Source of the DNA: Verrucomicrobiia bacterium
Lineage (GTDB): Bacteria; Verrucomicrobiota; Verrucomicrobiia; Limisphaerales; Fontisphaeraceae
Direction of reading: 5' to 3'
Length of the DNA stretch: 64,000 bases
Assembly: GCA_026414565.1 (NCBI GenBank)
Contig: JAOAIT010000055.1
Coordinates: forward strand, 1-64,000
Position 1 is the stretch's first letter. Each line of letters begins with the position of its first letter. This document shows, one piece after another, positions 1 to 12,063 of the stretch. The translations under genes were made by a program, and so were the position numbers. Below the pieces are notes generated by a model. It was not told the DNA's origin, made no database searches, and saw only the letters and a list, made by a program, of their open reading frames with translations.

Positions 1-1866
1 CACCAACGCGTGGGCATGCCGTCCGAATGGCGCTCCCTGGGCCGCGCCCTCTCTTCCGGCCGCCGCGATCTGCCGGTGTTGGCGGCGGACAAGGCGGGCA
101 ACTTGTACGCGGCCAGTTTTGGCGGGCGCTGGAATGCGCGCCTGAATGGCCAGTGGGTTGGCGAGCAACGCCTGCCCGCGCCGCGGGGGCACAAGCTGGG
201 TTTCGTGGCGCTTGCCACCACGCCGGACGGCCAGGTCTGGGCTTGTTGGGAAGAGGGCGACCAGGTGAATAATGACCAACTGGCCGGAACGTCGGGCTTG
301 TGGCTGATGCCACTCATCGCCCAGGCTGTGCGGCCGGCCGCCGAGGCCCCCCGTCCGGCCGCGCAGCCTGTCCGCCCCGCCACAATGGCGGTGCCGCGCC
401 AGATTCCGCCCCGGGTCAAGCAATGGGACCGTCTGGAGGTGGCGGTGGACGCCAACCGCAATTACCCGGACCCGTTTCGTGATGTTTCGCTCGATGCCAC
501 TTTTACCCGTCCGGATGGCAGCTCGGTGAAGTTCTGGGGGTTTTACGACGGCGGCCAGACGTGGCGACTTCGCTTCATGCCCGACCGCCCGGGCCGGTGG
601 AAGGTGAGCGCCGCTTTTTCTGATGGCGCGCCGGCTTTGCAGGGAGAGTTCGAGTGTGTGGCATCCGACGGCCCGGGGATGATTACCGTACACCAACCCA
701 ACCCCGTCTGGTTTGGTTACCGGGACGGGCCGGCGGTGCTGGTGCGGGGCCTGCATGTGGGCGACCGCTTTTTTGCCCGCAACTTTGCTGATCCACAGCG
801 CGAAGCGTTTCTCGATTGGGTGCAGGCGCATGAATACAACCTGCTTTCAGTGGCCAGTCATTACTTGAATCGCAACGCCCCGGGCCGCGGCCGCGGCTGG
901 CAAACGCCCGCGCTCTGGCCCCTGAATCCGGCCGAGTTTGCCTGGCTGGAAACCCAGCTCGAGGCGCTGGCCCGCCGCCGCATCCTGGTGTATCCCTTCG
1001 CCGGTTTTTTTGGTCGGGATGCCAATTTCCCCCGCTCGCCCCAGGACCAGGCGCTGTACGTGCGCTACACCTATGCCCGCCTGGGGGCTTACTGGAACCT
1101 GTTGTTGAATGTTGCCGGCCCGGAACCATTGCTGCGCGAGCACCCCTACCTGAGCCGCGAGGAGGTCAATCGTCTGGGCGCGCTCATCCAGCAGCATAAC
1201 GTGTTTGGCAAACCGCTCTCGGTGCACAACCGCACGGGCGATGATGAATTTCGTAATGAACCGTGGCTGACTTACGGCACGCTGCAGGGACCGAAGACCG
1301 TCAACCGCGCTCACCTGGCCCGGGGGTTGCTCGAAAGCCATCACCCGGCCAAACCGTTGCTGGCGCAGGAGACGCTGTGGTCCGGCAACACCTATCACAT
1401 CCAGGGCATCAAGCGGGATTATTCGGATGACGACCTCCGCAAAAACACCTTTGTCATCCATTTTTGCGCCGCCGCGCTGGTTTTTGCCGATAATTCAGGC
1501 GATTCCTCCAGCGGGTTTTCCGGCACGCTTGATTTGGCCGCCTGCAAAACGAACCGCCACGCCGCCGTCAAACGCGCCTGGGACCTTTGCGCCGCGCTGC
1601 CCTTTGGCAGCCTGAAGCCGCGCCCGGATTTGGTGAAGGGCGCGCATGCCCATTGTTTGGCCGAGCCGGGGCGCCTGTTCCTGGTGTACTTGGAAACCAG
1701 CCAGCCGGTCACTGTGCGGGTGGGCGACGGCGCGTGGCGTGCCACATGGATTGACACCCGCCCGCCATATCCGCGCCGGGATGGCGGTGTGATGCGCGAT
1801 GACCAGCCGGTAACTCCGCCGCCTGGCGGGGATGATTGGGTGTTGCAATTGGAACCGGCGCCGTAA
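1..1866 (+). CDS. Exported polysaccharide-degrading protein, DUF5060 plus apiosidase-like barrel (5' partial)
   Basis: The frame is open at base 1, so the true start lies outside the window; the GTG at 10 is only the first in-window start codon. The first ~95 visible residues look like a beta-propeller blade pair (AADKAGNLYAASFG and TTPDGQVWACWEEG). An Ala/Pro-rich linker follows, then a DUF5060-like beta-sandwich at about residues 135-220 (RFMPDRPGRWKVSAAF). Next comes a TIM-barrel region of the apiosidase/DUF4038 kind at about 230-530. A GPEP motif follows LLNVA where such barrels carry the first acidic catalytic residue, and LLAQETLWSGN supplies a second candidate Glu. The C-terminal ~80 residues (FLVYLETSQPVTVRV) resemble the small beta domain that ends these proteins. 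The neighbour at 2204 carries the same DUF5060-barrel core, so both probably act on related plant or algal polysaccharides outside the cytoplasm. The exact substrate cannot be read from the sequence. Confidence 0.75.
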   Translation, partial: HQRVGMPSEWRSLGRALSSGRRDLPVLAADKAGNLYAASFGGRWNARLNGQWVGEQRLPAPRGHKLGFVALATTPDGQVWACWEEGDQVNNDQLAGTSGLWLMPLIAQAVRPAAEAPRPAAQPVRPATMAVPRQIPPRVKQWDRLEVAVDANRNYPDPFRDVSLDATFTRPDGSSVKFWGFYDGGQTWRLRFMPDRPGRWKVSAAFSDGAPALQGEFECVASDGPGMITVHQPNPVWFGYRDGPAVLVRGLHVGDRFFARNFADPQREAFLDWVQAHEYNLLSVASHYLNRNAPGRGRGWQTPALWPLNPAEFAWLETQLEALARRRILVYPFAGFFGRDANFPRSPQDQALYVRYTYARLGAYWNLLLNVAGPEPLLREHPYLSREEVNRLGALIQQHNVFGKPLSVHNRTGDDEFRNEPWLTYGTLQGPKTVNRAHLARGLLESHHPAKPLLAQETLWSGNTYHIQGIKRDYSDDDLRKNTFVIHFCAAALVFADNSGDSSSGFSGTLDLAACKTNRHAAVKRAWDLCAALPFGSLKPRPDLVKGAHAHCLAEPGRLFLVYLETSQPVTVRVGDGAWRATWIDTRPPYPRRDGGVMRDDQPVTPPPGGDDWVLQLEPAP

Positions 1867-2203
1867 GGACCGGGATGAACTCCAAGGGCTGGAACCTTCT
1901 GGCCGCATATTCCGCACTCAGAAGTGACTCCTGGATGGACTTGGCGCGCCCCGCGTCCGCCCGCGTGGCGACAGCGGCCATGACGGCTTCGAGCGGGCGG
2001 CCGCGGCAAGGGAGGCAACCTCAGTGGGGCGGCAAAAAGACTTGCCGTGGGGGGGGGGGAATCGGAGAAGGTTTTCCTCAGTTGTGACACCATGAAAAAT
2101 CCCGCTGGCCGTGGCACTGAAGGCGCTGCCGGGCAGCGGATGTTCCCATAGGGGCGATTTCTTGTCAGCTCCATGAAGAAATGACCTTTAGCAGCTCACT
2201 GCC
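1867..2203. other. Intergenic gap (337 bp) with a G11 tract
   Basis: No convincing gene is seen between the two DUF5060 genes. The notable element is a run of eleven G at 2049-2059. No clear intrinsic terminator or strong promoter consensus is visible. The last 100 bases before 2204 are less GC-rich and could hold a promoter that I cannot pin down. Confidence 0.5.
2049..2059. repeat. Homopolymeric G11 tract
   Basis: Eleven consecutive G residues lie about 145 bp upstream of the start at 2204, in non-coding sequence. Tracts of this length are prone to slipped-strand change. Placed upstream of a secreted enzyme gene, it could alter promoter or leader spacing, but no promoter is recognised next to it. 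Confidence 0.9.
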
Positions 2204-5200
2204 ATGAACTTGATCCCATTTCCCCCTCGTTATTTATGGCCGTTCTTCATGCTTTGGGCTGGTTGCGGCACTCTGGCCGCCGCCGTCACCCCGCCCACCG
2301 AGGGCCGCCAGCCCGCCCGCTGGCGGGCGGAAACCACCGACTGGCAGGCGGCCACCAATCTGGTCATCGGCGATTGGGGTTTCAATCGCCCCGGTTACCC
2401 GGAGGGACTGTACATTCACGGCATCACCCGGCCCGCTGGCGAGCCTGTCACCAATCCGGTGATCTACGACAACGACGTGTATGACGATGTCTTTGACGAC
2501 GAGCTGGCGTACGTGATGGCCAGCGAGGGCGAGATGAACCTCGTGGCGCTCATCGTCACGCCGGTGCTGACGGATTTCTGGGGCTTTTCCAAACCGGGCT
2601 GGATCCAAACCGCGCATGATTCGCGCCGCAACGCCGAATTAAGCGGCTTGCGAATGGAGCGCATCCCGCCGATCACCGTGGGCACCGAGGCGCCCAACGA
2701 AAAGGCGGGTGAAAACAAGGATTCGGCGGGCGCGCGGTTGTACGTGCGGCTCATCAACGAGCACTTTGCGCGTGATCCGCAGCGGCCCGTCATCGTCAAC
2801 ATCGGCGGGCAGGGCGCCACGCTGGCCTCGGCGTACGGGCTGGACCCGTCCATCGCGCACAAGTGCATCGTGTATTACACCGATCTGCGGGTTTATAACG
2901 GGCATTACCAGTGGGCCTCCAAACTGATCGCCGCTCACTTCCGCGTGGTGAGCTGGGGCGACGACAACTGGTGGATTACCAAGCCGGCGCAGAACCAGTG
3001 GCGTGTGCTGCCGCGCCCGGAGAAGGCCGAGGGCCGGGAAAACGACGCCCGCAGCGGCGAGTGGCGACAACTGACGGAACTGCGCGTGCCGCTGCTGGAT
3101 CATATCGTCAAACAATTCCAGACCCGCGGCGAATATTGTCAGGGCCCCAAAAAAGCTGATGGTTATCTGGACGGCACCTTTTTGCATGCCTGGCTGCCGG
3201 GCATTTTCAGTGGCGCGGCGTTGCGGGAGATTCGCGGGGGGCAGGTGTTGCACGTGACCCGGTTCACCGAGGTGAACGAAGCGCGCGTCAAAGCCTTCGC
3301 CAACGCCCGTCTGCTCAACGCTCAGGCCTACCGGCGCGCCGCCGACCCAGGCGGCGTGTCATCCTCGGGGATTTCCCCGTCGCCAGCCCGGCAACTGCGG
3401 GCCGCGTTGTCCACCAATACGGTGGAGGTCTATGACTTTGTGGAAATCACGCTGCGGCCGGAGCCACCCATCAGCGGCAACCCATTCACCAATGCAGTCG
3501 TGGAAGGAGAGTTCATGCCGGCCAAAGGCGGCGCCGCGGTAAAAGTGGACGGCTTCTGCGACAGCCAGGATGGCAGCGTGTATCGCCTCCGCTTCATGCC
3601 GTCCCAACCGGGCGAATATCGCTACAAGGTCACGCTGCGCCACGGAGATCAGACGCTGGCGCACGAGGGGGCGTTCAACGCCCGGCGCGCCAATCGCCGT
3701 GGCATCCTGCGCGTGGACCCGAAATATCCGAATCATTTCCTCTGGGAAGGCACCGGCGAGCATTACTTTTGGAACGGCACCACCACCTACTACTTGATGG
3801 GTTGGCAGGACGACGCGGTCATCCGCCAGGCCATTGACCGCCTGGCCGCCTGCAAGATTAACCGCCTGCGCGTGCTGGTTTATGGCCGCAATGGCGACCG
3901 CCCCTGGAACCAGCCGGTCAGGTCCACCGCCGGCTTCAAGCTGTACTTAAATCCCTGGCTCGCCGCGCGGCCGGACGACGTGCAGAATCCCGGCTTCGAC
4001 CTTGCCCGCTTCAACGTCGAGTATTGGCAGAAGTTTGAACGCATGCTGCGGTACGCCCGCGAGCGGGATGTCATTATCTCGGTGATATTTTTTATCGGTT
4101 ATCAGGTCCTGCCCACCCCCTTTGCGGCGTACAGCGAGGACGAACAGCGGTACTACCGTTACGGCGTGGCGCGGCTGGCGGCCTTCAGCAATGTGACGTG
4201 GGACCTGGGCAATGAGCACGATGCCCATCGCGAAGTGCCCAAGTGGTGCGACTGGCTGGGGCCGCTGGTCAAACAATGGGACCCCTACGATCATCTGTTG
4301 TCCGCGCACAACAAGATTTACCGCACGCCCGGCCAGACCTGGAACGACATGCAACTGATCCAGCGCTGGGATGCCGGTCAGAATGCCTTTCTGCTGGGGG
4401 AGCGCGCCAGGCAGGCGGCCACCGGCCGCATCATCCCGCAAATCAATGAGGAATACGGCTATGAAGACTTGTGGGAAAAGCAGCCCGGTGAACGCAACGC
4501 CGATTCCCGCCGCCGGTGCGCGTGGGAAATTGCCATGGCGGGGTGTTACCAAACCACCGGTGAGACCGCCAACCGCGGCACCGGTTTTCCCCCGGACACC
4601 GGCGGCGGCTGGGTCAACGGGCGCGGCGATGACACCATGACCCTGTTGCGCGGCCACGTGCATCTGGTGGACTTTTTTACCGCCTTCGACTGGTGGCGCG
4701 CCGAGCCGCGCAATGATTTGGTCCAGCCCCCGGCCTTGTGCTTGGCGGAGACGGGCGAGGTTTATGCGGTGTATCTGCCACGCTCGGCCCGCGTGAAAAT
4801 CACCCTCCAAGGCCCCCTGAGTTATCGCGCCCGCTGGTTCAATCCCCGCACCGGCGAGTGGCTGAAACAGCCCGATGCCAGCGGGCCGGTCTGGGAGACC
4901 CCGGAACCGCCCGGCGAAGGGGACTGGGCGCTGCTGTTGACGCGGTTTGACTGGACCACGCGCGAGTGGAAAAGCTACCTGAATCACGACGGCCTCCAGT
5001 TCAACAACAATCGCTGGGCGGGCGAAAAAGGCTCCCTGCGGGTCCGCTTCGGGCCGCCCACGGCCAGTTGGTGGACCACGCACAATGGCAACCGCTGGGA
5101 TTTTCCGGTGTCGGCCCCGTGGGTGGGAGTGGGCAGCGACTGGGGCAATATCTCCACCAATTCGCCTTTTCCCATCAGGCTGAGCGAGCTGGAAGTGCTG

Positions 5201-5704
5201 AAAGCCTCTCTCTCGGCGACTGTGCCGTTGGGCAAGACCAACCAAATGTTCAAAATCTATTGGCAGCTTTATTTCTCCGACCAGCCCCAGGGCAAATTCA
5301 ACCGGGGCGATTTCGCGCCGACGGTCTATGGCGTCAACATCCCCTCCAACCATTGGGGCACCGTGCGCGGCCGCACGGTGGTGGACGGACGGACCTGGCG
5401 CTTTGCCGACCAGGGAACCAGCTCCGGCATGGGGCGCTTCATCATCCCGATGTTGGAACCGCCATTGACGCCCGATGACAATGGGGTGGTGGAAATCCGC
5501 AACGTGGACATCAAAGCCCTCATTGACTGGTGCATCGCCCAGGGCTTCTACCGCGCTGAAGATTACTGCCTGGTCATCCTCGCCGGTTGGGAAGTCTGGG
5601 TGCAGAACGACATCCTGCGCATGAACGACATGGCCTTCACCATCAAACAAAAGAACAAACCGGCGGTGACTATTCCCGCTTGGACCACCATGATGGACCC
5701 ATGA
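2204..5704 (+). CDS. Large exported multidomain carbohydrate-active protein (nucleoside-hydrolase-like, DUF5060, apiosidase-like barrel, GH12-like C-terminus)
   Basis: 1166 residues. The ATG start is followed by a hydrophobic export signal ending near LWAGC, an imperfect lipobox with W at -3, so lipidation is possible. Residues ~45-330 resemble a nucleoside-hydrolase-like fold: an Asp-rich segment (NDVYDDVFDDE), then a typical IVNIGGQGATLASA stretch. Residues ~395-475 are DUF5060-like (RFMPSQPGEYRYKVTL). Residues ~485-800 form an apiosidase/cellulase-type barrel with WDLGNEH (Glu671) and INEEYGYE (Glu749/750) as candidate catalytic acids. A small beta domain follows at ~820-890. The last ~260 residues (FNNNRWAG ... 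LAGWEVW, Glu1130 ... MNDMAFTI) have the layout of a GH12 jelly roll, but the usual first catalytic Glu (EIMIW) is not apparent. The stop overlaps the next gene by ATGA, implying translational coupling. Domain calls come from reading motifs, not from a search. Confidence 0.75.
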   Translation: MNLIPFPPRYLWPFFMLWAGCGTLAAAVTPPTEGRQPARWRAETTDWQAATNLVIGDWGFNRPGYPEGLYIHGITRPAGEPVTNPVIYDNDVYDDVFDDELAYVMASEGEMNLVALIVTPVLTDFWGFSKPGWIQTAHDSRRNAELSGLRMERIPPITVGTEAPNEKAGENKDSAGARLYVRLINEHFARDPQRPVIVNIGGQGATLASAYGLDPSIAHKCIVYYTDLRVYNGHYQWASKLIAAHFRVVSWGDDNWWITKPAQNQWRVLPRPEKAEGRENDARSGEWRQLTELRVPLLDHIVKQFQTRGEYCQGPKKADGYLDGTFLHAWLPGIFSGAALREIRGGQVLHVTRFTEVNEARVKAFANARLLNAQAYRRAADPGGVSSSGISPSPARQLRAALSTNTVEVYDFVEITLRPEPPISGNPFTNAVVEGEFMPAKGGAAVKVDGFCDSQDGSVYRLRFMPSQPGEYRYKVTLRHGDQTLAHEGAFNARRANRRGILRVDPKYPNHFLWEGTGEHYFWNGTTTYYLMGWQDDAVIRQAIDRLAACKINRLRVLVYGRNGDRPWNQPVRSTAGFKLYLNPWLAARPDDVQNPGFDLARFNVEYWQKFERMLRYARERDVIISVIFFIGYQVLPTPFAAYSEDEQRYYRYGVARLAAFSNVTWDLGNEHDAHREVPKWCDWLGPLVKQWDPYDHLLSAHNKIYRTPGQTWNDMQLIQRWDAGQNAFLLGERARQAATGRIIPQINEEYGYEDLWEKQPGERNADSRRRCAWEIAMAGCYQTTGETANRGTGFPPDTGGGWVNGRGDDTMTLLRGHVHLVDFFTAFDWWRAEPRNDLVQPPALCLAETGEVYAVYLPRSARVKITLQGPLSYRARWFNPRTGEWLKQPDASGPVWETPEPPGEGDWALLLTRFDWTTREWKSYLNHDGLQFNNNRWAGEKGSLRVRFGPPTASWWTTHNGNRWDFPVSAPWVGVGSDWGNISTNSPFPIRLSELEVLKASLSATVPLGKTNQMFKIYWQLYFSDQPQGKFNRGDFAPTVYGVNIPSNHWGTVRGRTVVDGRTWRFADQGTSSGMGRFIIPMLEPPLTPDDNGVVEIRNVDIKALIDWCIAQGFYRAEDYCLVILAGWEVWVQNDILRMNDMAFTIKQKNKPAVTIPAWTTMMDP

Positions 5705-7155
5705 TCCGGAAATATAACCACACCAGAATTCCACACCTGCTGGCCATGACAAAAGCGTGCAACCCCGGCGCCCTCCTCTCTGTGCTCCTGGCCGCCAGCC
5801 TGGCGGCAGCGGAGAAACCGCGTTGCGTGGTGGTCAGCGATATGACTCACGACGACGGCAACTCGCTGATCCGCATGTTGTATTACGCCAACGAGCTGGA
5901 TCTTGAAGCGATCACCATCGCGCCCCAGGAGCCGGACCACCGGTGGAACTCCGACGCCCCTTGGAAAAAAGTGCAGGCGATTTTAGACGCCTACGCCAAA
6001 GTCTATGACCGGCTCAAGGCGCACGACCCGGCCTATCCCACCCCCGAATACTTACGCCGCATCACCAAACGCGGCCACGGCGCCCTGCCAATCATCTGGC
6101 TGACCAAGGGCCATAAAGTGGACGACTGGATCGGTGAAGGCCGCACGCCCAACGGCCAGCCCAAGGACTCCGAGGCTTCAGACTTTTTGGTCGAAGTGCT
6201 GCTGCGCGACAATCCTCGCCCCTTGTACGTCGGTCTGTGGGGCGCGCCTCTGGTTTTTTCGCAGGCGCTGTACTGCCTGCAAAGCCGGCAGCCGGCGGAG
6301 CGGGTGGCGCAAATCATGGCCAAAGTGCATGTCTATTCCATCCACTTGCAGGACATCACCATGGATTACTTCTTTGACCTTCCCCGCTGGCAGGCCACGC
6401 CGCCGGGCAAAATCCAGGATTTTGCCTGGACGCCGTGGAGCGGCCCCCGCTTTCTTCACCCGCCGGCGCGGCTGCTGGTGGACATCAATCATTTCTGGTT
6501 TTACATTGGCGAGTCCCAGGCCATCACGGCGCAGGTGCCCGAGCATGGCCCGCTGGCCGCGCTCTATGACCGCGGCGGCGAAGGGGACACCCCGGCCTTC
6601 CTCTTTTTGCTGAGTGCCAATCTGGGCCTGAACGACCCCTGGGATCCCACCCAAGGTTCGTGGGGCGGCCGTTTCACACCGGGCAAAGGTGACGGCCAGC
6701 CGTGGCCCAATGTCTTCTCGACCGCGCGCGTGCGCGACCGCGAGCTGAAACGCTGGGCGCCCGACGTGCGCGCCAGTTTCCTGGCCCGTCTCCAGTACAC
6801 CATCAAACCGCCCGGCGAGGTCAACCACCCGCCCAGAGTGGTGTTGAATGGGGACCGCTCGGCCAAGGTTTTACGGCTGGCGGCCAGGCCCGGGCAAACC
6901 TTGACGCTGGATGCCGCCGGCACCGCCGACCCTGACGGCAACGAACTGACCTATAAATGGTGGCACTATCAGGAGACGGGCACCTACTCCAAACCGCTCA
7001 AGCTCCCGGAGGCGCATCAGCCGGTGTTGCGCTGGACGGCGCCCGATGACTTGGGCGACCAAACGGTGCATCTCGTGCTCGAGGTGCGCGATAACGGCAG
7101 CCCGTCCCTGGTGGCATATCGCCGGGTTATCCTGACCGGCACGCCCGCCCCGTAA
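5701..7155 (+). CDS. Sde182-type (DUF1593) nucleoside-hydrolase-like exported protein
   Basis: 484 residues from the ATG at 5701, which overlaps the previous stop (ATGA). An in-frame ATG at 5746 gives a shorter, more classical signal peptide (MTKACNPGALLSVLLAASLA) and may be the used start. The mature protein opens with CVVVSDMTHDDGNSL then RMLYYANELDLEAI, the signature region of the cellulose-binding Sde182 nucleoside-hydrolase-like family, with Asp residues where hydrolases bind calcium. Residues ~375-484 match the family's C-terminal beta domain (DAAGTADPDGNELTYKWW). Family members are usually encoded with polysaccharide-degrading enzymes; the substrate is not settled. Coupling to the 2204 gene, which carries its own nucleoside-hydrolase-like N-terminus, argues that both act on the same glycan or glycoside. 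No terminator is evident before the unrelated gene at 7363. Confidence 0.8.
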   Translation: MIRKYNHTRIPHLLAMTKACNPGALLSVLLAASLAAAEKPRCVVVSDMTHDDGNSLIRMLYYANELDLEAITIAPQEPDHRWNSDAPWKKVQAILDAYAKVYDRLKAHDPAYPTPEYLRRITKRGHGALPIIWLTKGHKVDDWIGEGRTPNGQPKDSEASDFLVEVLLRDNPRPLYVGLWGAPLVFSQALYCLQSRQPAERVAQIMAKVHVYSIHLQDITMDYFFDLPRWQATPPGKIQDFAWTPWSGPRFLHPPARLLVDINHFWFYIGESQAITAQVPEHGPLAALYDRGGEGDTPAFLFLLSANLGLNDPWDPTQGSWGGRFTPGKGDGQPWPNVFSTARVRDRELKRWAPDVRASFLARLQYTIKPPGEVNHPPRVVLNGDRSAKVLRLAARPGQTLTLDAAGTADPDGNELTYKWWHYQETGTYSKPLKLPEAHQPVLRWTAPDDLGDQTVHLVLEVRDNGSPSLVAYRRVILTGTPAP

Positions 7156-7342
7156 GGCGCGCACCCCGCCAGTGCCCGCCCCGCACCCCCGGCCCCCCGC
7201 CAATGCGCAACGCCCAGCTCCCCGGCCAGTGCCCCCCAAACCTCACCGGCAGGCGTTTGGTTTCGATGGGCTTGATGACGCCATGTTCACTGGGCTGCGT
7301 CGTGGCGGAAAAGTTTTGGGTGAAGAAGCGTGCGGGATTCGC

Positions 7343-7348
7343 TATACT
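7343..7348 (+). promoter_or_regulatory. Candidate -10 element for the GHKL-helicase gene
   Basis: TATACT lies 14 bp before the ATG at 7363. That would give a very short leader, and no Shine-Dalgarno is seen. No -35 with normal spacing is present (TTGGGT is 21 bp upstream). The call is weak. Confidence 0.25.
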
Positions 7349-7362
7349 TCGCGCGTGAATCC

Positions 7363-10300
7363 ATGGAACTAACTGTCAACCGACTACGGGAGAGCACCCT
7401 TAAAGCTTACGAGGCGCGTCCGGCACTCCTGCGTGAACATTATGGAATCGAACAGGTGGTACTGGCCGGTGGCTATGGATATCGGCAGGTGATGGAGCTT
7501 GTCCAGAATGGAGCTGACGCTGTTTTAGAGGCTTGCGAGCAGGGAAATTCCTTGTCCTCCGGCAATATTGTACAGGTGATCCTTCGCGGCTCACGACTTT
7601 ACGTTGCCAACACAGGCGCCCCTCTTAGTGAGGAAGGCATCGATGCTCTGATGAGTTCCCATTCTTCCCCCAAGCGTGGCAATCAGATTGGCCGGTTTGG
7701 ACTCGGCTTCAAGTCATTGCTCCGGCTGGGTGGATGCATAGATTTATTCACCCGTTCCTGTGGGGCTGTGCGATTCGATCCAGAGCGGTGTCGGCGTGAG
7801 TTGCGGGAAAGGTTTGGTGTGACCGAAGTCCCGGGGTTGCGGCTGGCATGGTCGCTCGATGAATCAGAGCGGGCTGCTGACCCATTGCTGGCAGACTTGG
7901 CCTGGGCCGAAACCATCGTGCGTGCCGAGATCAAGACGGCCGACATGGAGGCCCACTTACGGCAGGAGATCAGTGCCTTCCCGGCGGAGTTTCTGCTCTT
8001 TCTGCCCGTCTCCCTGGTTTTAGAGTTGGATGACGGAGAAAAGCCGCCTCGAACAATTTGTGCTAAGCCTAATGGCGTTCGCCGTATTCTTCGCATCGGG
8101 GCGGAAGAGTCGCTTTGGCAGGTCGTTTGCCGCGAAGTGGCCATTACCGACGTGCGCGCCCGTGCCGACGCAACCCACATTCACGCCCGCGAGAAAGTTC
8201 CGGTGGCTTGGGCTGTGCCGCTGGATGCGAAGCGGGAGGAAGCCGGACGTTTCTGGGCGTTCTTCCCGACGCACACCCCAACTTACTTGCCGGGCATTGT
8301 TAATGCGCCGTGGAAGCTGAACAGTGATCGGAATGCGATTATTGGCGGGGAGTGGAACTCGGCGCTAATGTATGAAGCGGCCCGGCTTATTGTGGAGACG
8401 TTACCCACACTTTCCACGCCTGAAGATCCGGGGCGGCCTCTGGATGCTTTCCCACGTCAGCTGGCGCGTACGGATGAGGATGCAGCTCCACTGGTCGAGG
8501 CAGTCTGGAAGGCATTGGAAAGCGCCGCCGCCGTGCCCAATGCGGCTGGGAAGCTAAGGCCAGCGCTCAAGTTGTGGCGCCATCCACTGGACGATGCCGA
8601 CATTGCCAACCAGTGGCAGAGGCTCGCCAAGAATGAGCAAAAGACCGAACTGGTTCATCCTTCCTGTTATGAGCGCCAGCGGGGCAGTCGGCTAAATGCC
8701 TTGGCGGAGCGGCTGGCCGCGCGCGGAACTCAAACCCCGCACGAACCAGTTCTGCGTAAACAGGCGCCTTCTGCGTGGTTTGCAGCGGTGGCTTCTACTG
8801 AGCTGGCCCGGGCAGTCGAGGTTTTAAAGCTCGCCGCAGCCTATGCAGATCACTGCTTGCCCTGGGAATGGAGTTCTCAGGTTCGGCCTACACTAGCAAT
8901 CATCTTGACGGACCGGGGGAAGCTGGTGACGGCCAACCAGGCGGTGTTCGCCCCGGAAGGCACGCGTGTGCCGGATGGCCGACATCCCGTTGCCCGCGTG
9001 TTATGTGAACAGGCCGAGGCGAGGCGGATTATAACCGAGGTGATGAAAGTCAAACCGCTGGACGAAAGCGTGTGGCTTGACGTCCTTCGGGAGGCGTTAC
9101 GCGGAATCCCCGATTCCCCTGCCGACAGCCAGGACAAAGGATGGTTGGCATTCTGGAACCTACTCAGAAAAGCTCCCCCGGGGGTAGCTCAAGAATTCAT
9201 CACTGAGAATGGCAGCCAAGTCCAGGTCAGGCGAAACGACGGCCAATGGGTTCCGCAAGATGAAGTGCTGCTTCCAGGGGAACTGGTCAGCGCGGAGGAG
9301 AGCTCATCAAATAAGAATGTCCTTGTTGATCCGGCTGTGCACGCTACTGATATCGAGTTGTTGAAACGCTTAGGGGTATCGGACTTTCCAAAGGGGAAGG
9401 TTACTGTTCGAGACTGCTTGGCCTTAGACAATTGGCTCCGGCATTGGCGCGCTTACTACCGCCGCCATGTGGATGGACGGGCACGCTGGGATTACCTAAA
9501 GCCGTCAAGGTTTGAGTTTCCAAAAGGCTGGCTTTTCCTTCCGAAATTGATCGGCCCAGCTCGAGCAAAGCTGACCGCATACTTTATTGATCAGCTTGGC
9601 GGGGGCGAGTTCCCGGAGAGCGTACAATTCGGGCACTCCAGTGTACGAAGCTACCCTGAGATTCACGTTCCGCATCCTTTGCCTTGGTTTTTGCTGCAAC
9701 ACGGGGTAGTGCAAGTGGGCGACTACATAGTATGTCTTGCGGCGATCCTCGCGCGGCGGCATGAGCCTGCACTGGCCAAACTGCCCGTCTGGACGCAACT
9801 AAAGCTAGCGCTCGAAAAACACGACGGTGTTGAGCCGCAGGTGCGGGCAACTGAGAAGGAAATTCAGGCGCTGTGGCACGCGTTGATAAAGCTGCTGGCC
9901 ACGGACGGGGCAGTTGCGGACGACTCGCTGCAAGCTCTTTGGAGCGGTGCGGCAAAGGATGGCATAGTTCCCGAAACGCTCCCTAGTGCGACAGGCGCAA
10001 TTCCCTTGTCCCAAGTTTTTGTAAGCGGGTCGCCTGACCTTGCTCGTCGCGCTCGCACGAACGGTCGCATCGTGGTCACGCTGGATAATGAAACGCTGCA
10101 GCTCTGGTTAAACAAAGGAGCGCAGAACCTGGAAAGCTTAATGTTCCCTGAGTGGACGCAGCAGATCGGCCCGGCAGCGCTGCTTGTTTTCACCGTGCCT
10201 GAGCTTGCCGAAGTCATGCAGTCTGAGGTGAAGGATACCGCCCGCTGCCAGCCAGTAGCAGGGCTGAAGCTGAACATCGCTGGCCAGGCCGAGCCTGTGC

Positions 10301-12063
10301 CATGCCTTATGTGGCAAAATTGCTTGTTCCTCGATTTGGCTGAGCTGTCCAAGTGGTCAAGGGCCGAACGGCTTAGGCACCTGTTAGCCGAGGTTGCACC
10401 TGCTGGCTGGTTGATGTACACCCCGGAAGAAGCGTTGCGAATTTTAGGGGATGCACAGGTTGACGCGCTGCGCGCAAGGGTGGCTGGAGGCAACACGCTC
10501 GCCGAGCGATTGCTGTTGGCCGTTGGAAACCGGCGCGAACCGCTAGAAAAAGCTCTTGGTGGTTTGGCCGGAATGGAATTCATCCGGCAGTGCCAGCCGC
10601 TGCAACTTGCCGAATTGATCCTTGCACAACTCGGTCCGGCCACGCTTGTCACTCTGAAAGACGCATTGAAGGACGAAGGATTGAAACCCCCATCACGGTG
10701 GAACTCAGCCGAAGCCCGTGCCTTCGTTGCCAGCATCGGTTTTCCAGAGGAATTCGCCGCTTCAGCTGAAGGGCGACGCGAGCCGGAGGAGATAATCAGT
10801 GGACCGATTGATTTGCCGCCTCTCCACGATTTTCAGGAAGAAATCCTGGCTGGCATCAAGACCTTGCTCAAGTCCAATCAAGGTCGTCGCCGCGCCGTGA
10901 TCAGCCTGCCAACAGGCGGCGGCAAAACACGGGTAACAGTCGAGGCCGCAGTGTTGCTGGTGCTCAAACCCGAAGGGGAACAACGCAGTGTGCTGTGGGT
11001 CGCGCAGACAGATGAACTCTGCGAGCAGGCGGTGCAGGCATTTCGACAAGTCTGGATCAATCTCGGAGCGCAGCGGACTAACTTGCGGATCATCCGTTTT
11101 TGGGGCGGACACCCAGACCCCGCGGCTTACGAGCCGGGCAAACCAGTCGTCGTAATTGCCTCCATTCAAACCCTGCAAAACCGAATGGGGGGGACCAATT
11201 TAGAGTGGCTGCAAAAGCCCGGCCTCGTCGTGGTGGACGAGTGCCACCATGCCATCACACCCAGTTATACAAACCTGCTTCGATGGCTGGATGCAGAAGC
11301 TCCACGTTTCGGACAGCCGCCAAAAGAAGAGCCGCCGATTCTGGGCTTGAGCGCGACACCATTTCGAACGGACGATGAGGAAAGCCGGCGCCTCGCCCGC
11401 CGTTTCGACCAGCGCTGGCTTCCGCCAGACCAGCAAAACCTGCACCGGAAATTGCTTGTCCAAGGTGTTCTGGCCAAGGTCATAGCAGAACCGCTCGACT
11501 CGGGCGTCGCCGTGTCTGAAGACCTTCTCGACGAGTTGATGTCACTGCTTGACAGTGGCGGGGGCCCTGATTTCGAAAGGCAGCTGGAAAATATAAACCA
11601 ATCCCTCGCCCGAAACGAGCAGCGCAACGAACGCCTTGTCGCACGGATCAAGAGCGCCGAAGAAAAGTCCATCCTTTTCTTCGCCAATTCAGTGCTTCAC
11701 GCAGAAGAGATGTCCGCCCGCCTGAATCTGGAGCGTATTCCAGCAGCGGCGGTGAGTGGTAAAACAGCGCCCGCGGCCCGGCGTTACTTCCTTGAACGTT
11801 ACCAACGCGGCGAAATCCGCGTGCTCTGCAATCACACGGTTCTCAGCACCGGCTTTGATGCACCGAAGACCGACATGATCCTTATTGCCCGGCAGGTCTT
11901 CAGCCCTGTTCGCTACATGCAGATGGTGGGGCGTGGGCTGCGTGGCCCGAAAAACGGTGGCACGGAAACTTGCCGGATCGTGACCGTCTTGGACAACTTG
12001 GGCCGATTCCAAGACCGCCATCCCTACCACTACTGCCAGCGATATTTTTCGACTAATATGTAG
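7363..12063 (+). CDS. Sacsin/NOV-type GHKL ATPase fused to SF2 (DEAD/DEAH) helicase; candidate defence protein
   Basis: 1566 residues from ATG 7363; an in-frame GTG at 7330 would add 11. The N-terminus is a Bergerat-fold GHKL ATPase of the sacsin/NOV kind: N-box ELVQNGADA (Glu45, Asn49), ANTGAPLSEEGI as the ATP-lid G1 motif (from ~82), and GRFGLGFKS (110-118). FFPTHTPTYLPGIVNAPWK (~310-330) resembles the following Hsp90-like middle segment. Residues ~400-1130 show no family I recognise. The C-terminus is an SF2 helicase: PTGGGKT Walker A (1183-1189), DECHH motif II (1292-1296), GLSATPFRTD motif III (from 1328), and QMVGRGLRG motif VI with Arg1524/1527 as likely arginine fingers. The protein ends ~35 residues after motif VI, leaving little room for another domain. 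The gene is less GC-rich and uses more varied third bases than its neighbours, which suggests transfer. It stands alone between polysaccharide and regulatory genes. Helicases paired with GHKL ATPases occur among anti-phage systems; defence is an inference. Confidence 0.85.
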   Translation: MELTVNRLRESTLKAYEARPALLREHYGIEQVVLAGGYGYRQVMELVQNGADAVLEACEQGNSLSSGNIVQVILRGSRLYVANTGAPLSEEGIDALMSSHSSPKRGNQIGRFGLGFKSLLRLGGCIDLFTRSCGAVRFDPERCRRELRERFGVTEVPGLRLAWSLDESERAADPLLADLAWAETIVRAEIKTADMEAHLRQEISAFPAEFLLFLPVSLVLELDDGEKPPRTICAKPNGVRRILRIGAEESLWQVVCREVAITDVRARADATHIHAREKVPVAWAVPLDAKREEAGRFWAFFPTHTPTYLPGIVNAPWKLNSDRNAIIGGEWNSALMYEAARLIVETLPTLSTPEDPGRPLDAFPRQLARTDEDAAPLVEAVWKALESAAAVPNAAGKLRPALKLWRHPLDDADIANQWQRLAKNEQKTELVHPSCYERQRGSRLNALAERLAARGTQTPHEPVLRKQAPSAWFAAVASTELARAVEVLKLAAAYADHCLPWEWSSQVRPTLAIILTDRGKLVTANQAVFAPEGTRVPDGRHPVARVLCEQAEARRIITEVMKVKPLDESVWLDVLREALRGIPDSPADSQDKGWLAFWNLLRKAPPGVAQEFITENGSQVQVRRNDGQWVPQDEVLLPGELVSAEESSSNKNVLVDPAVHATDIELLKRLGVSDFPKGKVTVRDCLALDNWLRHWRAYYRRHVDGRARWDYLKPSRFEFPKGWLFLPKLIGPARAKLTAYFIDQLGGGEFPESVQFGHSSVRSYPEIHVPHPLPWFLLQHGVVQVGDYIVCLAAILARRHEPALAKLPVWTQLKLALEKHDGVEPQVRATEKEIQALWHALIKLLATDGAVADDSLQALWSGAAKDGIVPETLPSATGAIPLSQVFVSGSPDLARRARTNGRIVVTLDNETLQLWLNKGAQNLESLMFPEWTQQIGPAALLVFTVPELAEVMQSEVKDTARCQPVAGLKLNIAGQAEPVPCLMWQNCLFLDLAELSKWSRAERLRHLLAEVAPAGWLMYTPEEALRILGDAQVDALRARVAGGNTLAERLLLAVGNRREPLEKALGGLAGMEFIRQCQPLQLAELILAQLGPATLVTLKDALKDEGLKPPSRWNSAEARAFVASIGFPEEFAASAEGRREPEEIISGPIDLPPLHDFQEEILAGIKTLLKSNQGRRRAVISLPTGGGKTRVTVEAAVLLVLKPEGEQRSVLWVAQTDELCEQAVQAFRQVWINLGAQRTNLRIIRFWGGHPDPAAYEPGKPVVVIASIQTLQNRMGGTNLEWLQKPGLVVVDECHHAITPSYTNLLRWLDAEAPRFGQPPKEEPPILGLSATPFRTDDEESRRLARRFDQRWLPPDQQNLHRKLLVQGVLAKVIAEPLDSGVAVSEDLLDELMSLLDSGGGPDFERQLENINQSLARNEQRNERLVARIKSAEEKSILFFANSVLHAEEMSARLNLERIPAAAVSGKTAPAARRYFLERYQRGEIRVLCNHTVLSTGFDAPKTDMILIARQVFSPVRYMQMVGRGLRGPKNGGTETCRIVTVLDNLGRFQDRHPYHYCQRYFSTNM

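What the first reader, a model, noticed from the sequence alone, without database searches (positions are those of the whole stretch)
2204..5704. Unusual architecture: nucleoside-hydrolase-like, DUF5060-barrel and GH12-like jelly roll in one exported protein
The N-terminal third resembles the Sde182/nucleoside-hydrolase fold, the centre an apiosidase-like barrel with intact acids (Glu671, Glu749/750), and the C-terminus a GH12-type fold that keeps GWEVW (Glu1130) but seems to lack the first catalytic Glu. The terminal domain may have become a glycan-binding module.
Basis: inference. Interest (0 to 1): 0.52.

Follow-up and report, generated by a model that had tools for sequence, protein, structure and literature searches.

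The report
Three-part secreted sugar-cutting protein
One exported bacterial protein joins a sugar-binding fold borrowed from nucleoside-cutting enzymes, a probably working plant-sugar-cutting barrel and a cellulase-shaped domain that has lost its catalytic centre; related genomes carry the first part as a separate gene beside apiose-cutting-type enzymes, which hints that the two work together.

Summary
Window 2204-5704 (+) is one open frame of 1166 aa with a signal-like start. (1) Residues about 82-382 take the nucleoside-hydrolase (NH) fold (model Z 19; 22 of 22 PDB sequence hits are NHs or Sde_0182), in a subfamily that Pfam does not recognise. (2) Residues 396-915 are DUF5060 + apiosidase-like barrel + Collagen_bind_2; E671 and E750 sit on the catalytic positions (E750 in 33 of 33 rows with a letter there; E749 is not the nucleophile). 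(3) Residues 916-1166 are a GH12 fold (Z 22). Of five GH12 signature residues invariant in 30 of 30 relatives, only the acid/base (E1130) remains; Asp, nucleophile Glu, Met and Trp are Q1021, G1043, N1045 and P1047. So it is very probably a dead GH12, plausibly a glycan anchor (not shown). New here: relatives of the NH module lie within 10 kb of apiosidase-family barrels in 7 of 12 genomes (this one included), with stop/start overlap in three, and one other genome has an NH fused to a barrel in the opposite order. The exact three-part fusion was seen only in this genome. Most likely a cell-wall glycan hydrolase with furanoside-recognising and glucan-binding modules; substrates are inferred.

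The parts
2204..2284 (+). Signal-peptide-like start (residues 1-27), hydrophobic stretch then AAA|V
   Evidence: read directly in the translation; no signal-peptide program was available
2447..3349 (+). NH-fold domain (about residues 82-382); Asp residues D89, D91, D98, D99, D323 and N232 at or near the metal/ribose positions
   Evidence: AF2 model pLDDT 65.5, pTM 0.74; VIA Z 19.1 to 1mas_B, 246 aligned, 3.1 A; relatives' profile hits RihA 1yoe at 1.6e-14; D89, D91, D98, N232, D323 invariant in 11 rows
3419..3637 (+). DUF5060 beta domain (406-478)
   Evidence: Pfam PF16586 1e-13
3638..4738 (+). Apiosidase-like TIM barrel; acid/base E671 (codon 4214), nucleophile E750 (codon 4451)
   Evidence: Pfam PF13204 2.2e-11 on 593-781; 4n0r 1e-18; column counts
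4739..4939 (+). Collagen_bind_2 beta domain (846-912), usual C-cap of such barrels
   Evidence: Pfam PF12904 2.3e-5
4949..5701 (+). GH12-fold domain with lost catalytic centre: Q1021 for Asp, G1043 for nucleophile Glu, N1045 for Met, P1047 for Trp; acid/base E1130 kept
   Evidence: phmmer to GH12; AF2 pTM 0.74; VIA Z 22.1; profile and column counts
5701..7155 (+). Next gene: Sde182-type NH-like protein + Sde0182_C domain; its ATG (5701-5703) overlaps the stop TGA (5702-5704)
   Evidence: overlap read directly; Pfam PF07632 1.5e-50, PF21027 2.3e-25
1..1866 (+). Upstream gene, cut by the contig start: DUF5060 protein
   Evidence: Pfam PF16586 5e-21; contig C55 begins at window base 1

Best explanation
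A secreted three-module protein for plant-type (or similar) cell-wall glycans. The central barrel is the working part: a retaining glycosidase of the DUF5060/apiosidase-like group, with E671 as acid/base and E750 as nucleophile. The N-terminal NH-fold domain recognises, and may hydrolyse, a furanoside on the same glycan through its Asp/metal pocket; it derives from a stand-alone protein that in related genomes is co-translated with apiosidase-family enzymes. The C-terminal domain is a former GH12 glucanase that lost the nucleophile and three further centre residues and now serves as a beta-glucan-type anchor. Shown: fold of each module, the residues kept and lost, the gene overlaps. Inferred: secretion, catalysis by the barrel, furanoside binding, glucan binding, the substrate.
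For: Folds. Barrel acids kept. GH12: Asp, Glu, Met, Trp and acid/base Glu are each 30 of 30 in relatives, and P0001 keeps one of the five; 24 of 65 positions conserved in at least 90% of relatives are kept, among them N936, W938, W980, E1130, W1132. Genomic context: 7 of 12 genomes have a PF13204 barrel within 10 kb of the N-type NH gene (G000 and G513 with the NH fused to a barrel, G472, G463, G551 with overlapping stop/start, G533 at 3.2 kb, G467 at 6.9 kb); naive expectation 0.17 genomes, P about 2e-11. Sde182-type genes also pair with it: overlap in the window, adjacent in L141, 1.4 kb away in L139, fused in L151. Sde_0182's NH domain keeps Ca2+, is inactive on nucleosides and was proposed to interact with furanose sugars (PMC8910321, passages read).
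Against: No substrate, activity or binding was tested. 5 of 12 N-type genomes show no PF13204 barrel within 10 kb (two of them have none in the assembly). The barrel's PF13204 match is partial (profile 74-271 of 320), so 'apiosidase' may be the wrong substrate. The chance figure assumes random placement, whereas such genes cluster. Both models have middling confidence and were made with relatives' alignments, so the fold tests are not fully independent of the sequence tests. Only one genome carries the whole fusion; its same-genus neighbour G453 lacks it.
Confidence: 0.55

Rival explanations
1. The N-terminal NH-fold domain is a true furanosidase (a second enzyme in the chain), so the protein is a two-enzyme fusion acting in sequence with the barrel.
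For: D89, D91, D98, N232 and D323 are invariant in 11 N-type rows; P0001 has Asp at 99 as canonical NHs do, where 0 of the 10 other N-type rows has it; overlap with apiosidase-family genes in relatives.
Against: The register of the second Asp pair is ambiguous: the profile alignment to RihA puts it elsewhere. P0001 has Tyr at a position that is Asp in most rows (Y235). The solved relative Sde_0182 is reported inactive on nucleosides.
Confidence: 0.25
2. The C-terminal GH12 domain is simply decaying or purely structural, with no glycan-binding role.
For: Only 24 of 65 conserved positions are kept; Met and Trp of the centre are lost too; no second protein with this degenerate domain was found.
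Against: The frame is intact with the same third-base G+C as the other modules (80.5 against 81.2 and 80.0); N936, W938 and W980 are kept.
Confidence: 0.25
3. The C-terminal domain still cuts glycans by another route (for example an inverting or substrate-assisted mechanism with E1130 as acid).
For: E1130 is kept in its motif; D1036 lies seven residues before G1043 and one phmmer pairing puts it on the nucleophile position.
Against: Asp, Met and Trp of the centre are lost as well; the profile and MAFFT registers do not place D1036 there.
Confidence: 0.07
4. The fusion is an assembly chimera of neighbouring genes.
For: Whole architecture in one genome only; the genome is a 71-contig assembly.
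Against: One uninterrupted frame of 1166 codons, uniform third-base G+C and stop/start overlap with the next gene, and an independent NH-barrel fusion in G513.
Confidence: 0.05

Closest known systems
Sde_0182 of Saccharophagus degradans (PDB 2yhg; PF07632 + PF21027)
   Same: multidomain protein with an NH-fold domain joined to carbohydrate-related modules; model Z 16.9, 245 aligned, 3.3 A
   Different: the N-domain here has no PF07632 match, belongs to another NH subfamily and is joined to a glycosidase barrel and a dead GH12; the Sde182-type protein is the next gene
DUF5060/apiosidase-like glycosidases (PDB 4n0r; PF16586+PF13204+PF12904)
   Same: domain order DUF5060-barrel-cap and both Glu residues; best relatives 46-54% identical
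   Different: of the relatives examined by Pfam, some end at the cap and others carry Laminin_G or Big modules; none has an NH domain before or a GH12 fold after
GH12 endoglucanases (1h0b, 3wx5, 7mkr)
   Same: jelly-roll fold over the whole domain (Z 21-22), acid/base Glu, NxW and WG motifs
   Different: nucleophile, Asp, Met and Trp of the active centre are replaced
PsXLP1, a catalytically dead GH12 of an oomycete (PMC8960721, passage read)
   Same: a GH12 protein that lost activity and kept a binding role
   Different: PsXLP1 lost the other catalytic Glu by truncation and binds a protein; here the nucleophile side is lost inside a bacterial multidomain protein

Membership tests
Nucleoside hydrolase fold superfamily (N-domain) | overall NH fold | tested here: met
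   VIA Z 19.1, 246 aligned, 3.1 A; all 50 listed rows are NH-fold; Foldseek best 7.2e-6
Nucleoside hydrolase fold superfamily (N-domain) | DxDxxxDD metal/ribose motif and C-terminal Asp (motif recalled) | tested here: inconclusive
   D89xD91 and D323 are invariant in the subfamily; DD at 98-99 in P0001 comes after a longer loop and the register differs between alignments
PF07632 Sde182_NH-like (N-domain) | match over the curated cut-off | tested here: not met
   no PF07632 row for P0001 at E up to 1
Active nucleosidase / furanosidase | hydrolysis of a furanoside | not testable with these tools
   needs enzyme assay
DUF5060/apiosidase-like barrel | Pfam matches over cut-off for all three domains in the usual order | tested here: met
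DUF5060/apiosidase-like barrel | two catalytic Glu | tested here: met
   E671 and E750
True apiosidase (GH140; name recalled) | release of apiose | not testable with these tools
   PF13204 match is partial (74-271 of 320), so membership is not claimed
GH12 fold | GH12 jelly roll | tested here: met
   phmmer 3.7e-8; Z 22.1, 208 aligned, 2.5 A, with listed rows 1-43 GH12-type
GH12 enzyme | catalytic nucleophile Glu | tested here: not met
   Gly1043 on the position that is Glu in 30 of 30 relatives
GH12 enzyme | acid/base Glu | tested here: met
   E1130, 30 of 30 Glu in relatives
GH12 by Pfam PF01670 | match over cut-off | tested here: not met
   no PF01670 row for P0001 at E up to 1, although the relative L106 passes

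The most novel reading that the evidence does not exclude
The N-type NH proteins are a dedicated partner of apiosidase-family barrels: a new class of furanoside-processing (or furanoside-presenting) proteins built on the nucleoside-hydrolase fold. P0001 is the fused form that exposes this partnership, with a dead GH12 recruited as its cell-wall anchor.
Probability: 0.3. Interest if true: 0.7.

Novelty: new variant of a known kind. Interest (0 to 1): 0.47.

Why it matters
NH-like domains in carbohydrate-degrading bacteria (Sde_0182 type) have no established role. The fusion here and the overlapping genes in relatives tie one such subfamily to a defined enzyme group, which makes the role testable with furanosides such as apiosides. 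The C-terminal domain gives a bacterial case of a glucanase fold kept after its catalytic centre was lost.

Tried and rejected
Close relatives of the C-domain: none in genome contigs by its own peptides, in viral contigs, in plasmids at E up to 10 (one 28% partial match at E about 2) or in 387 phylum genomes beyond its own. A profile with two PDB GH12 segments found 28 GH12 loci, mostly actinobacterial, and three places in 196 genomes of the order besides its own: L105 and L106 keep the nucleophile; L107 I dropped, because its frame reads as an aldo/keto-reductase-like protein (my reading).

N-domain alone: no PDB hit by phmmer; in 387 phylum genomes one other weak match (G369, E 3.4e-4), which I dropped because its frame gave no NH family. 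Of the 21 genomes, I used 12 with strong matches for the neighbour count; G553 (strong, but a 182-aa fragment) and the eight weak ones (E 5e-10 or weaker) were left out before the count. A profile of the 11 N-type rows matched 38 of 357 phylum genomes, but nearly all by a short shared stretch of other NHs; I looked closely only at L151.

I first missed apiosidase neighbours in L142 and L143 because my ORF picker took shadow frames; the PF13204 search and one search corrected this. In L063 (G399) the adjacent 230-aa frame has only a sub-threshold Collagen_bind_2 match and was not counted.

'4N0R' returned only unrelated population-genetics papers. DUF5060 is named in one held paper, whose title is on another subject. 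Seven paper searches showed no report of an NH/apiosidase pairing or of this fusion, judged from the listings; the library lacks most subscription papers.

Full report
Observation. Window 2204-5704 (+) is one uninterrupted frame of 1166 codons with third-base G+C of 81.2, 80.0 and 80.5 per cent in its three parts. Its stop overlaps the start of the next gene (ATGA at 5701-5704), which encodes a Sde182-type NH-like protein (PF07632 1.5e-50, PF21027 2.3e-25). Upstream, cut by the contig start, lies another DUF5060 protein.

Barrel. Pfam finds DUF5060, Apiosidase and Collagen_bind_2 in this order, and the nearest solved chain is 4n0r (1e-18). Aligned with 34 barrel frames from related genomes (L003 and L072 are copies of one place; two rows lack the region), E671 is Glu in 29 and Asp in 4 of 33 rows, P0001 included; E750 is Glu in 33 of 33 and E749 is Asp in 18. 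E750 is therefore the nucleophile position. The close relatives L035, L036, L037 and L005 carry Asp at the acid/base position.

C-terminal domain. phmmer with the domain alone gives 1h0b at 3.7e-8, and all six GH12-type hits lie above a gap to unrelated chains at E about 0.9. The AF2 model (14 rows, pLDDT 69.8, pTM 0.74) matches 1h0b at Z 22.1 over 208 residues, 2.5 A; listed rows 1-43 are GH12-type, then GH11. The model used GH12 relatives as its alignment, so the sequence result is the independent one. A profile built from 30 relatives without this protein places G1043 on the nucleophile, N1045 on Met, P1047 on Trp and Q1021 on Asp; each is invariant in 30 of 30 relatives, as is the acid/base Glu, which is kept as E1130. 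A MAFFT addition gives the same register. phmmer pairings gave D1036 or P1039 instead; none gives Glu. The patterns that fetched 28 of the 30 did not include these sites. Kept positions include N936, W938 and W980; that residues of this kind line the glucan cleft is recalled, not tested.

N-terminal domain. No Pfam match. Stand-alone relatives occur in the same order. A profile of 17 rows, five of them more canonical NHs, hits 22 PDB sequences, all NHs or Sde_0182, best 1yoe at 1.6e-14. The model (pLDDT 65.5, pTM 0.74) matches 1mas_B at Z 19.1 over 246 residues, 3.1 A, and all 50 listed rows are NH-fold, including 2yhg (Sde_0182) and XopQ. D89, D91, D95, D98, N232 and D323 are invariant in the 11 N-type rows. 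P0001 has D98-D99 where the ten others have D then N, A or K.

Neighbourhood. In 12 genomes with strong N-type matches, PF13204 barrels lie within 10 kb on the same strand in 7: this one and G513 (NH fused to a barrel; in G513 a PF13204 gene lies about 3.2 kb away), G472, G463 and G551 (stop/start overlap with a 479-520-aa apiosidase-type frame), G533 (3.2 kb) and G467 (6.9 kb); in G515, G451, G485, G439 and G399 they do not. Random placement would give 0.17 genomes, an approximation that ignores clustering. G513 carries a barrel followed by an NH domain in one 709-aa frame (DUF6298 2.3e-8, IU_nuc_hydro 1.4e-12), the opposite order. Sde182-type genes pair with N-type genes in the window, in L141 and L139, and are fused in L151.

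Distribution of the whole. In 387 phylum genomes the barrel or its cap has relatives in 38 (own included), the C-domain in its own genome only and the N-domain in its own plus one dropped weak match. In 58 genomes of the order no second full-length match appeared; the same-genus genome G453 has only two short matches, both in the barrel's cap region.

Reading. The parts support a secreted cell-wall glycan hydrolase whose active part is the barrel, with an NH-fold module that probably handles a furanoside and a dead GH12 as a probable glucan anchor. A review states that the NH domain of Sde_0182 keeps Ca2+, is inactive on nucleosides and is thought to interact with furanose sugars (PMC8910321, passages). 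Apiose being a furanose in plant glycans (recalled) makes the pairing with apiosidase-family enzymes sensible, but this barrel's match to that family is partial and the substrate is open. Dead GH12 proteins are known (PsXLP1, PMC8960721, passage).

Noticed in passing
window 7330-12063 (+): 1577-aa protein: N-part like the defence protein TmtA (PADLOC 9.3e-42), C-part an SF2 helicase (ResIII 1.6e-19); possible anti-phage gene right after the glycan genes.
   Followed up: partly
L147:5603-7729 (-), genome G513: Barrel followed by an NH domain in one 709-aa frame, the reverse order of P0001; a nearby frame (954 aa) joins an apiosidase-like barrel and a GH5-type (Cellulase) match.
   Followed up: partly
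L151:1363-3315 (+), genome G020: N-type-like NH domain fused to a Sde182-type NH domain in one 651-aa frame.
   Followed up: partly
L106:1489-3015 (-), genome G465: GDSL/SGNH esterase fused to a GH12 domain that keeps both catalytic Glu.
   Followed up: no
L005, L035, L036, L037: Close barrel relatives with Asp in place of the acid/base Glu at the E671 position.
   Followed up: no
window 2049-2059: Run of 11 G between the upstream gene and the start of P0001, the only homopolymer of 9 or more in the window; a possible slippage site.
   Followed up: no
L065:8388-10241 (+), genome G439: N-type NH domain followed by two NIPSNAP matches in one 618-aa frame.
   Followed up: no
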